Of a stretch of DNA of 64,000 nt, positions 53,977 to 56,250 are shown piece after piece. A program made the translations under genes and the position numbers. The notes beneath the pieces are model-generated. The model did no database searches. It had not been told where the DNA came from and saw nothing but the letters and a program-made list of their open reading frames with translations. The stretch is from Saprospiraceae bacterium (GTDB lineage: Bacteria; Bacteroidota; Bacteroidia; Chitinophagales; Saprospiraceae): positions 1 through 64,000 of the forward strand of contig JAJCYI010000034.1 in NCBI GenBank assembly GCA_029263015.1. Reading direction: 5' to 3'. Numbering within the stretch: position 1 is the stretch's first letter; every line of letters begins with the position of its first letter.

Positions 53977-54522
53977 ATGAAAAAAGCCATTTTTACTTTC
54001 CTCGGTTTTATCCTGCTCTTTTCCTTTTCCTGCGAAAAGAAAAACATCTTCAACCCGGAGCCGCCCGATGAGCTGCCCCCCACTACCATGACCGGGGCCA
54101 ATACATTCGGCTGCTTGGTCAACGGGGAGGTGTGGAGGCCTTATGTTGAAACACTTGCATTTGGCCTTAGGCTAAATGTAAAGCATGACAGGGGGTGGGT
54201 GGATTGTGATCAGTTATTTATTGGAGCAAAAAGAATATTAACCGGAAATGAAGTTTTACATCAGGAAATTACAATAAATGTTTGGTGTCCAGTATTCGGC
54301 GAAAATAATATTACTCCTGCAAAAGGTGCTTTCGTTTGTTTTGAGCCCCGCGGTTGTAGTTATAATATTGACACTTTAAGTCCCTACACTATAAATATAA
54401 CTAGACTTGATACGATCAATAACATTGCCTCTGGGACATTTGAATTTACAGCAATAAACAATGAATGCCAGGATACTTTAAGGATTACAGAAGGCCGGTT
54501 CGATGCCGATTCGAGTTTATGA
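53977..54522 (+). CDS. Tandem lipoprotein array, copy 2
   Basis: Lipobox LLFSFSCEKK; TGANTFGCLVNGEVWRPYVE...CQDTLRITEGRFDADSSL. Confidence 0.92.
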   Translation: MKKAIFTFLGFILLFSFSCEKKNIFNPEPPDELPPTTMTGANTFGCLVNGEVWRPYVETLAFGLRLNVKHDRGWVDCDQLFIGAKRILTGNEVLHQEITINVWCPVFGENNITPAKGAFVCFEPRGCSYNIDTLSPYTINITRLDTINNIASGTFEFTAINNECQDTLRITEGRFDADSSL

Positions 54523-54553
54523 CATAAACACTCAAATAAAAAACACCGCCGCC

Positions 54554-55105
54554 ATGAAAAAAGCCATTTTCACTTTCCTCGGTTTCACCCTGCTCCTTTC
54601 CTCTTCCTGCGAAAAGAAAAACATCTTCAACCCAGAGCCGCCCGATGAGCTGCCCCCCGCTACCATGACCGGGGCCAATACCTTTGGTTGTCTTGTGAAC
54701 GGGGAGGTGTGGAGGCCGTATATTGAGGGGGGGATATTTGAAAACGCTTTAAATGTAAAGCATGATAGGGGGTGGGTGGATTGCGATCAGTTACATATTA
54801 GTGCAATAAGAAAATCCCACGAAGATGGTGTTTATGTTCTGCATCAAGAAATAGGAATCAATGTTTGGTGTCCTGAGTTGGGTATTAATAATATAACACC
54901 ATCCAAAGGAGCTTTCCTTTGTTTCAAGCCAAGTGGTTGTAGTTATGATGTTGACACTTTAAGTCCCTACACTATAAATATAACTAGACTTGATACGATC
55001 AATAACATTGCCTCTGGCACTTTTGAATTTACCGCGATAAGCGACGAGTGCCAAGATACATTAAGGATTACAGAAGGCCGATTCGATGCCGATTCAAGTT
55101 TATGA
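54554..55105 (+). CDS. Tandem lipoprotein array, copy 3
   Basis: Start MKKAIFTFLGFTLLLSSSCEKK; shared N- and C-terminal blocks. Confidence 0.92.
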   Translation: MKKAIFTFLGFTLLLSSSCEKKNIFNPEPPDELPPATMTGANTFGCLVNGEVWRPYIEGGIFENALNVKHDRGWVDCDQLHISAIRKSHEDGVYVLHQEIGINVWCPELGINNITPSKGAFLCFKPSGCSYDVDTLSPYTINITRLDTINNIASGTFEFTAISDECQDTLRITEGRFDADSSL

Positions 55106-55136
55106 CATAAACACTCAAATAAAAAACATCGCCGCC

Positions 55137-55682
55137 ATGAAAAAAGCCATTTTCACTTTCCTCGCTTTCATCCTGCTCCTTTCCTTTTCCTGCAAAAAGA
55201 AAAACATCTTCAACCCAGAGCCGCCCGATGAACTGCCCCCCGCTACCATGACCGGGGCCAATACATTCGGCTGCTTGGTCAACGGGGAGGTGTGGAGGCC
55301 TTATGTTGAAGATCCATATTTTTTGGAAACGACTATTTTTGCTAAACACGACAGAGGGTGGGTAGGCTGCGATCAACTATTAGTTTCTGGTAAACTAAAG
55401 ACTTCTTCAGAAAACGAGGTTCATCAAGACATGAAAATGAATATTTGGTGTCCAATCTTAGGCGAAAACAAAATTACATATAGCAAGCGAAGTTTTAGAG
55501 ATTTTAATGGTTGTGGTGAATATCATTTGGACACCTTGAGTCCACATATTCTTATAATTACAAAACTAGATACGATAAACAACATTGCCTCTGGCACTTT
55601 TGAATTCACTGTGATAAGCGACGAGTGCCAAGATACATTAAGGATTACGGAAGGGAGATTCGACGTAGATTCGAGTTTATGA
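55137..55682 (+). CDS. Tandem lipoprotein array, copy 4
   Basis: Start MKKAIFTFLAFILLLSFSCKKK; shared blocks. Confidence 0.92.
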   Translation: MKKAIFTFLAFILLLSFSCKKKNIFNPEPPDELPPATMTGANTFGCLVNGEVWRPYVEDPYFLETTIFAKHDRGWVGCDQLLVSGKLKTSSENEVHQDMKMNIWCPILGENKITYSKRSFRDFNGCGEYHLDTLSPHILIITKLDTINNIASGTFEFTVISDECQDTLRITEGRFDVDSSL

Positions 55683-55713
55683 CATAAACACTCAAATAAA
55701 AAACACTGCCACC

Positions 55714-56250
55714 ATGAAAAAAGCCGTTTTTCCTTTCCTCGGTTTTACCCTGCTGCTTTCCTTGTCCTGCGAAAAGAAAAACATCTTCAACCCAGAACTG
55801 CCCCCCGCTACCATGACCGGGGCCAATACATTCGGCTGCTTGGTCAACGGGGAGGTGTGGAGGCCTTATGTTGAAACACTTGCATTTGGCCTTAGGCTAA
55901 ATGTAAAGCATGACAGGGGATGGGTAGATTGTGATCAGCTACATATTGGAGCGAGAAAATTGAAACTCGGAGAAGATAGTTTATTTCAGGAATTTAATAT
56001 TAATGTATGGTGTCCAATATTAGGGGAAAATAAAATAACGCCATCTAAGGGAGTTTTTCACTTTTTCCACCAACCATGTGGTTATAGATATCGAGTTGAT
56101 ACTCTTAGTCCCTACATTATGAATATTACAACGCTAGATACATTAAACAATATCGCTTCGGGCACTTTTGAATTTACCGCGATACACGATGGTTGCCAAG
56201 ATACTTTAAAGATTACCGAAGGTCGATTCGATGCCGATTCGAGTCTATAA
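55714..56250 (+). CDS. Tandem lipoprotein array, copy 5
   Basis: Start MKKAVFPFLGFTLLLSLSCEKK; shared blocks, PPDE segment deleted. Confidence 0.92.
   Translation: MKKAVFPFLGFTLLLSLSCEKKNIFNPELPPATMTGANTFGCLVNGEVWRPYVETLAFGLRLNVKHDRGWVDCDQLHIGARKLKLGEDSLFQEFNINVWCPILGENKITPSKGVFHFFHQPCGYRYRVDTLSPYIMNITTLDTLNNIASGTFEFTAIHDGCQDTLKITEGRFDADSSL

What the first reader, a model, noticed from the sequence alone, without database searches (positions are those of the whole stretch)
54140..55930. Mosaic (gene-conversion-like) pattern among array copies
Seen directly: copies 2 and 5 share a ~50-nt identical block (ttatgttgaaacacttgcatttggccttaggctaaatgtaaagcatgacaggg) absent from 3 and 4. Copies 2 and 3 share ccctacactataaatataactagacttgatacgatcaataacattgcctctgg. 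Copies 3 and 4 share the 3' block gataagcgacgagtgccaagatacattaaggattac. Copies 1 and 4 share the HDRGWVGCDQL...LDTLSPH centre type. No single duplication tree explains all of these, so segmental recombination between copies is likely.
Basis: partly seen in the sequence, partly recalled or inferred. Interest (0 to 1): 0.7.

Follow-up and report, generated by a model that had tools for sequence, protein, structure and literature searches.

The report
Recombining array of surface lipoprotein genes
Five neighbouring copies of one lipoprotein gene in an uncultured Saprospiraceae bacterium have traded segments with each other by recombination; related arrays in other Bacteroidota do the same and often sit directly in front of a gene for a secreted lipase-like protein, which suggests a shuffled repertoire of protective (immunity) lipoproteins.

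Summary
Window 53401-56250 carries five tandem copies (unit about 577 nt) of a Riean_0653-family lipoprotein (NCBIfam NF052634), inserted between thrA and thrB. My GENECONV-like, PHI-like and 3SEQ-like tests, and a no-recombination simulation with site-specific rates (0 of 1000), reject a single duplication tree. Topology (AU) tests alone are weaker. Silent sites of the 5' module (signal peptide to GEVWRP) are homogenised (mean pS 0.21), while the centres are near saturation (0.69). The silent-site contrast recurs in several Bacteroidota arrays, and segment exchange is significant in the second array tested (G028). Between arrays the 5' module is not silently conserved, so this is concerted evolution, not DNA-level constraint.

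Outside the window, relatives' arrays often lie directly upstream, same strand, of a large exported protein with an alpha/beta-hydrolase (PGAP1/DUF676-like) region and usually a T9SS sorting tail: 7 of 8 strong hits not used to build the profile. Lipase fragments lie between copies, including in a same-genus relative. The window genome has no such protein. Best reading: an orphan, recombining repertoire of lipase-immunity-type lipoproteins. Recombination is well supported; the immunity role is inferred.

The parts
50836..53292 (+). thrA (aspartokinase / homoserine dehydrogenase), left flank of the array
   Evidence: ORF; protein matched beside thrB in five of the 12 other congeners that have a thrB match; name from sequence knowledge
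53401..53945 (+). copy 1: frameshifted (one base missing near 53498, TGA at 53512-53514 overlapping the internal ATG at 53511); body 53511-53945 remains open; centre type A
   Evidence: NF052634 90.6 bits over cut-off 57
53977..54522 (+). copy 2: intact 181-aa lipoprotein, centre type B; mosaic of copy 5-like and copy 3-like segments
54554..55105 (+). copy 3: intact 183-aa lipoprotein, centre type B; shares 67 nt with copy 2 and 36 nt with copy 4
55137..55682 (+). copy 4: intact 181-aa lipoprotein, centre type A with a copy 3-like 3' end
55714..56250 (+). copy 5: intact 178-aa lipoprotein, centre type B; 12-nt deletion in the linker; right edge of the array
54083..54194 (+). recombination tract in copy 2, identical over 112 nt to copy 5 (55808-55919)
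   Evidence: GENECONV-like global p 0.0002; null maximum run 85; length
55808..55919 (+). matching tract in copy 5
54368..54434 (+). recombination tract in copy 2, identical over 67 nt to copy 3 (54951-55017)
   Evidence: GENECONV-like global p 0.0004
54951..55017 (+). matching tract in copy 3
55036..55071 (+). 3' block in copy 3, identical over 36 nt to copy 4 (55613-55648)
   Evidence: GENECONV-like global p 0.011
55613..55648 (+). matching 3' block in copy 4
53942..53976 (+). first of four short intergenic spacers (91-100% identical between copies 2-5) that belong to the conserved block around each start codon; others at 54519-54553, 55102-55136, 55679-55713
56662..57594 (+). thrB (homoserine kinase), right flank of the array
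   Evidence: name from sequence knowledge

Best explanation
The array is a set of five tandem paralogues of a Riean_0653-family (NF052634) lipoprotein that exchange segments by homologous recombination. Conserved DNA blocks (spacer + signal peptide + MTGANTFGCLVNGEVWRP at the 5' end, the KHDRGWV motif, the GTFEF...ITEGRFD 3' end) act as crossover or conversion sites, so the 5' module is homogenised while the old, divergent centres are kept and reshuffled (well supported, about 0.9; conversion versus unequal crossing-over not resolved). The likely biological reason (inferred, about 0.4) is that these are inhibitor or immunity lipoproteins for exported lipase-like proteins: in other Bacteroidota the array lies directly upstream of such a protein, usually T9SS-tailed, and broken lipase pieces lie between copies. 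The window array would be an orphan repertoire that moved into the thr operon and has no lipase left.
For: Recombination. Silent sites: window 5' module mean pS 0.21 against centre 0.69; synonymous codon mismatch 0.15 against 0.46 in the window and 0.04 against 0.46 in copies 2-6 of G028, but 0.58 in the 5' module between different arrays, so there is no general silent constraint there. The silent contrast recurs in further arrays; tract tests were run on one other array, G028, and are significant. Five-copy array G517 is upstream of a lipase-like gene. Lipase link: 14 of 34 lipase-profile hits in Saprospiraceae and 6 of 18 in the phylum sample have an NF052634 gene within 1.5 kb upstream on the same strand (five of these built the profile); of eight strong hits (E below 1e-77) not used for the profile, seven are linked (G054 is not). 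T9SS tail TIGR04183 over cut-off in 6 of the proteins scanned; alpha/beta hydrolase over the Pfam cut-off in two (PGAP1 in L125, DUF676 in L130). Lipase remnant between copies in same-genus G009 (second search). No lipase in G000. Thr operon: the congener with the closest thrB (G004, 84%) has thrA and thrB about 55 bp apart with no array. C-X-K-(D/E)2 surface-export motif in many relatives (motif from PMC5080379).
Against: A short-read MAG could be mis-assembled in a repeat array, and no strain data were available. Immunity is untested. In Riemerella, disruption of Riean_0653 reduces haemolysis and complementation restores it (PMC7881567), which fits a positive role (chaperone, anchor, activator) at least as well. 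T9SS is not known to me to deliver toxins into other cells. More than half of the lipase-profile hits have no lipoprotein found next to them, and many family members have no lipase neighbour. The window copies lack the surface-export motif (C-E-K-K-N). The lipase fold could not be confirmed by structure prediction (pLDDT 44).
Confidence: 0.6

Rival explanations
1. The copies duplicated recently and only the centre diverged fast under diversifying selection or targeted mutagenesis; no exchange between copies.
For: Conserved ends with a variable middle look like this at first sight.
Against: Centre synonymous sites are as diverged as between species and pN is well below pS; exact 112-nt and 67-nt tracts link different copy pairs; simulation without recombination fails.
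Confidence: 0.04
2. Assembly artefact: reads from different copies or strains were joined into chimeric copies.
For: The window genome is a 245-contig assembly, the array is repetitive, and copy 1 has a frameshift.
Against: The longest identical run is 112 nt, which long assembly k-mers usually bridge; the same silent-site pattern occurs in other assemblies, including one on a single 7.5 Mb contig (G074); tracts are significant in a second genome.
Confidence: 0.06
3. The lipoprotein is not an immunity factor but a positive partner of the exported lipase (membrane-anchored chaperone or foldase, surface anchor, substrate-binding partner); copies adapt to different lipases or lipids.
For: Gene order lipoprotein then lipase; Riean_0653 mutants lose haemolysis and are complemented (PMC7881567).
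Against: Long arrays with many divergent copies, orphan arrays without a lipase and lipase fragments between copies resemble immunity repertoires more than a dedicated chaperone.
Confidence: 0.3
4. The lipoproteins are surface antigens or nutrient-binding proteins diversified against phage, predators or for ligand choice; the lipase neighbour is incidental.
For: Predicted surface lipoproteins in relatives; recombination of conserved blocks is typical of antigen families; several arrays have other neighbours (propeller-like gene in G074, HTH gene in L104).
Against: The linkage to lipase-like genes recurs across families of the phylum.
Confidence: 0.2

Closest known systems
esaG and tipC tandem immunity gene arrays of Firmicutes T7SS (PMC9484751)
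   Same: Tandem non-identical paralogues; conserved blocks at gene ends and spacers with variable parts between; tracts shared between different copy pairs; broken copies; pieces of toxin genes in some clusters of the same kind (tspA fragments in the tsaI cluster).
   Different: Different phylum and secretion system, no sequence relation tested or expected; here lipoproteins and T9SS-tailed lipase-like neighbours; copy-number change between strains not observable here.
DUF576 / Lpl / Csa lipoproteins and the lipase toxin TslA with its inhibitor TilA in S. aureus (PMC10730906, PMC7360770)
   Same: Multi-copy lipoproteins, recombining tandem arrays (lpl recombination as summarised in PMC9484751, citing earlier work), genetic link to a secreted lipase that one of them inhibits.
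   Different: No DUF576 match found for the window proteins; Gram-negative cell envelope; lipase delivered by T7SS there, T9SS-tailed here; inhibition shown there, only inferred here.
Riean_0653 family (NF052634; Riemerella anatipestifer, PMC7881567)
   Same: Family membership by curated cut-off.
   Different: The paper reports one gene that affects haemolysis; arrays, recombination and the lipase link are not mentioned in the passages I read.
Tle lipase / Tli lipoprotein pairs of T6SS (for example Tle3/Tli3, PMC9860674)
   Same: Phospholipase effector paired with an outer-membrane lipoprotein immunity protein.
   Different: Different secretion route; no homology tested. Only the abstract of PMC9860674 was seen.

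Membership tests
NF052634 Riean_0653 family lipoprotein | Score above the curated NCBIfam cut-off (57 bits) | tested here: met
   90.6-129.1 bits for all five copies
NF052634 Riean_0653 family lipoprotein | Signal peptide with lipobox cysteine | tested here: met
   LLFSFSC / LLLSxSC in copies 2-5 read from sequence; copy 1 frameshifted; no signal-peptide predictor run
Pfam DUF6252 | Score above the gathering cut-off (27.2 bits) | tested here: not met
   15.8-24.1 bits; relatives match better, best E 7e-12
Recombining tandem-paralogue array (esaG/lpl type) | Tandem non-identical copies with conserved blocks and tract sharing between different pairs | tested here: met
Recombining tandem-paralogue array (esaG/lpl type) | Copy-number or mosaic variation between closely related strains | not testable with these tools
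Lipase immunity lipoprotein (TilA/Tli-like function) | Genetic linkage to a lipase-like gene in the same genome | tested here: not met
   window genome has no such gene at E 1e-10, only a 34-residue stub at E 0.004; met in many relatives
Lipase immunity lipoprotein (TilA/Tli-like function) | Binds and inhibits the lipase | not testable with these tools
   needs biochemistry
DUF576 (TilA/Lpl/Csa) family | Sequence membership | tested here: not met
   no DUF576 match at E 0.1 in Pfam for 19 members
Bacteroidota surface lipoprotein (LES motif C-X-K-(D/E)2) | Export motif after the lipobox cysteine | tested here: not met
   window copies CEKKN/CKKKN lack it; present in L101, L102, L103, L104, L105, L111, L112 copies (motif from PMC5080379)
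alpha/beta hydrolase with T9SS sorting tail (neighbour protein in relatives) | Hydrolase region and T9SS C-terminal domain above curated cut-offs | tested here: inconclusive
   TIGR04183 over cut-off in L118, L116, L119, L065, L125, L131; PGAP1 over cut-off in L125 and DUF676 in L130, otherwise below; structure model too poor

The most novel reading that the evidence does not exclude
Bacteroidota carry a type IX secretion-linked antagonism module: cell-surface or released lipases neutralised by strings of recombining surface lipoproteins, with orphan immunity strings (as in the window) kept by strains that lack the lipase.
Probability: 0.33. Interest if true: 0.82.

Novelty: new variant of a known kind. 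Interest (0 to 1): 0.56.

Why it matters
Recombination among tandem immunity genes is known in Firmicutes. I found no report of it for a Bacteroidota lipoprotein family, nor of a link between such lipoproteins and T9SS-tailed lipase-like proteins (and other searches of an open-access library; not exhaustive). If the immunity reading is right, it would make the question of whether T9SS takes part in bacterial antagonism directly testable, and would give a role to a family annotated only as Riean_0653 / DUF6252-like. If it is wrong, the arrays still offer a clear case of concerted evolution confined to one end of a gene.

Tried and rejected
Fold search of the copy 2 model (pLDDT 85, beta-rich) gave no significant match in the PDB (best E 0.11) or viral library (best E 0.44). 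The PDB sequence search with the lipoprotein profile gave only chance-level hits. One PADLOC hit (PglZ, 1 of 19 members, E 1.7e-4) looked spurious and was dropped. The structure model of the lipase region failed (3 sequences, pLDDT 44), so it was not searched. The PDB sequence search with the lipase profile gave weak hits only; the best on the hydrolase region were PET hydrolases at E 0.6. Bacteroidetes-type promoter pattern in the window: 6 matches against 5.4 expected, none in the array. DNA-level constraint as the cause of 5' conservation was tested with between-array comparisons and rejected. Literature: the 2008 Tsuru and Kobayashi paper on a tandem paralogue cluster (reference seen) is not held, so the lpl work is cited through PMC9484751.

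Full report
What is there. Between thrA (50836-53292) and thrB (56662-57594) lie five tandem copies of one gene with a unit length of about 577 nt. Copies 2-5 are intact lipoproteins of 178-183 aa. Copy 1 has lost one base near 53498 and stops at a TGA overlapping an internal ATG, and its body remains open. All five score above the curated cut-off of NCBIfam NF052634, Riean_0653 family, and below the cut-off of Pfam DUF6252. No further copy exists in this genome at the threshold used. The array is an insertion into the thr operon: the congener with the most similar thrB (G004, 84%) has thrA and thrB about 55 bp apart, and four other congeners also have them adjacent. In other congeners thrA is not next to thrB at all.

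Is the mosaic real? In permutation tests, the copy 2/5 tract (alignment columns 201-255 of the variable region) and the copy 2/3 tract (441-504) are significant even when the conserved ends are left out (global p 0.0002 and 0.0004). The copy 3/4 3' tract is weaker (p about 0.01). A PHI-like test gives p 0.0005-0.0045, and a 3SEQ-like test of triplets gives Bonferroni p 0.003 for copies 2, 3 and 5. Sequences simulated on the best tree with posterior site rates never reached the observed values (0 of 1000 for each of two statistics). Topology tests alone are softer: the central segments group copies 1 and 4; the 3' segment groups 3 and 4 and leaves the (1,4) trees at AU p 0.06-0.08; segment 425-505 rejects (3,4) at 0.011. 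These tests are my own implementations, not the published programs (AU tests were run with iqtree2).

What kind of exchange? Silent sites separate selection from exchange. In the window the first 55 codons have mean pS 0.21 between copies, the centre 0.69 and the 3' end 0.52; the centre is under purifying selection (pN well below pS). If the 5' end were conserved at the DNA level for some function, different arrays would share its silent sites; they do not (codon mismatch 0.58 between arrays, 0.15 within the window). The 5' module is therefore homogenised within the array while the centres are old. The spacers belong to the same block (91-100% identical between copies 2-5). Whether this is gene conversion or unequal crossing-over cannot be decided from one genome.

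It is not a peculiarity of this genome. A search of 199 genomes of the family found NF052634 in tandem at several places. In G028, five copies share the first 52 codons almost without silent change (mismatch 0.04) with centres at 0.46, and tract tests are significant. Weaker versions of the silent contrast are seen in G117, G196, G159, G065, G158, G074 and G517; in some arrays (G001, one G096 array, G225) it is absent or faint. Tract tests were run only on the window and G028.

The neighbour that was not in the finding. In many relatives the gene directly after the array encodes a large exported protein with a signal peptide, a GxSMGG alpha/beta-hydrolase region and, usually, a T9SS sorting tail. 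The hydrolase assignment is modest: PGAP1 in L125 and DUF676 in L130 exceed Pfam cut-offs, others fall below, and a structure model failed. With a profile of five such proteins, 14 of 34 hits in the family and 6 of 18 in a phylum-wide sample have an NF052634 gene within 1.5 kb upstream on the same strand. The profile was built from five linked loci, so the fair figure is 7 of 8 strong hits (E below 1e-77) not used to build it, and 6 of 10 further hits (E below 1e-50) outside the family. Lipase fragments lie between lipoprotein copies in G096:C65, in L064, and in the same-genus relative G009, whose lipoprotein is about 60% identical to copy 2. The window genome itself has none.

Most likely working. 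Shown: tandem paralogues, segment exchange, homogenised ends, linkage in relatives. Inferred: the lipoproteins inhibit or guard against the linked lipases, with the variable centre setting specificity, and the window array is an orphan repertoire. The parallel is close to esaG/tipC arrays (PMC9484751) and to TilA, a DUF576 lipoprotein that inhibits the secreted lipase TslA (PMC10730906). There is no family relation to DUF576. The main counter-evidence is that Riean_0653 mutants in Riemerella lose haemolysis and are complemented (PMC7881567), which suits a positive partner of a lipase equally well. The window copies also lack the surface-export motif C-X-K-(D/E)2 that many relatives carry (PMC5080379).

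Limits. The source is a fragmented genome; mis-assembly is unlikely but not excluded. Strain comparison was not possible. Literature was searched only in an open-access library.

Noticed in passing
L101, L102, L103, L105, L106, L108, L065, L066, L067, L125, L130, L131: A large exported lipase-like protein, usually with a T9SS sorting tail, lies directly downstream of the lipoprotein array.
   Followed up: yes
L014 7432-7614 (-) = L062 5663-5845 (+): A lipase N-terminal remnant sits between a broken and an intact lipoprotein copy in a same-genus genome.
   Followed up: partly
G096:C65 (L103/L119) and L064: Fragments of lipase genes alternate with lipoprotein copies, as in displaced toxin-immunity clusters.
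   Followed up: partly
window 53498-53514: Copy 1 has lost one base; the resulting TGA overlaps an in-frame downstream ATG (ATGA), so re-initiation without a signal peptide is conceivable; it could also be a pseudogene or an assembly error.
   Followed up: partly
window 53293-56661: The array interrupts thrA-thrB, which are adjacent in five congeners; in six others thrA is not within reach of thrB at all.
   Followed up: partly
L110 (G074:C1): Lipoprotein copies alternate with copies of a 511-aa protein that looks like a repeat/propeller protein, also mosaic-looking.
   Followed up: no
L104 2697-3668, L105 2855-3811, L110 442-1425: A similar HTH-type gene is divergently transcribed from the lipoprotein array in three genomes.
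   Followed up: no
L125 (G517:C13): In a five-copy array upstream of a lipase-like gene, copies 3 and 5 are nearly identical while copy 4 between them differs.
   Followed up: no
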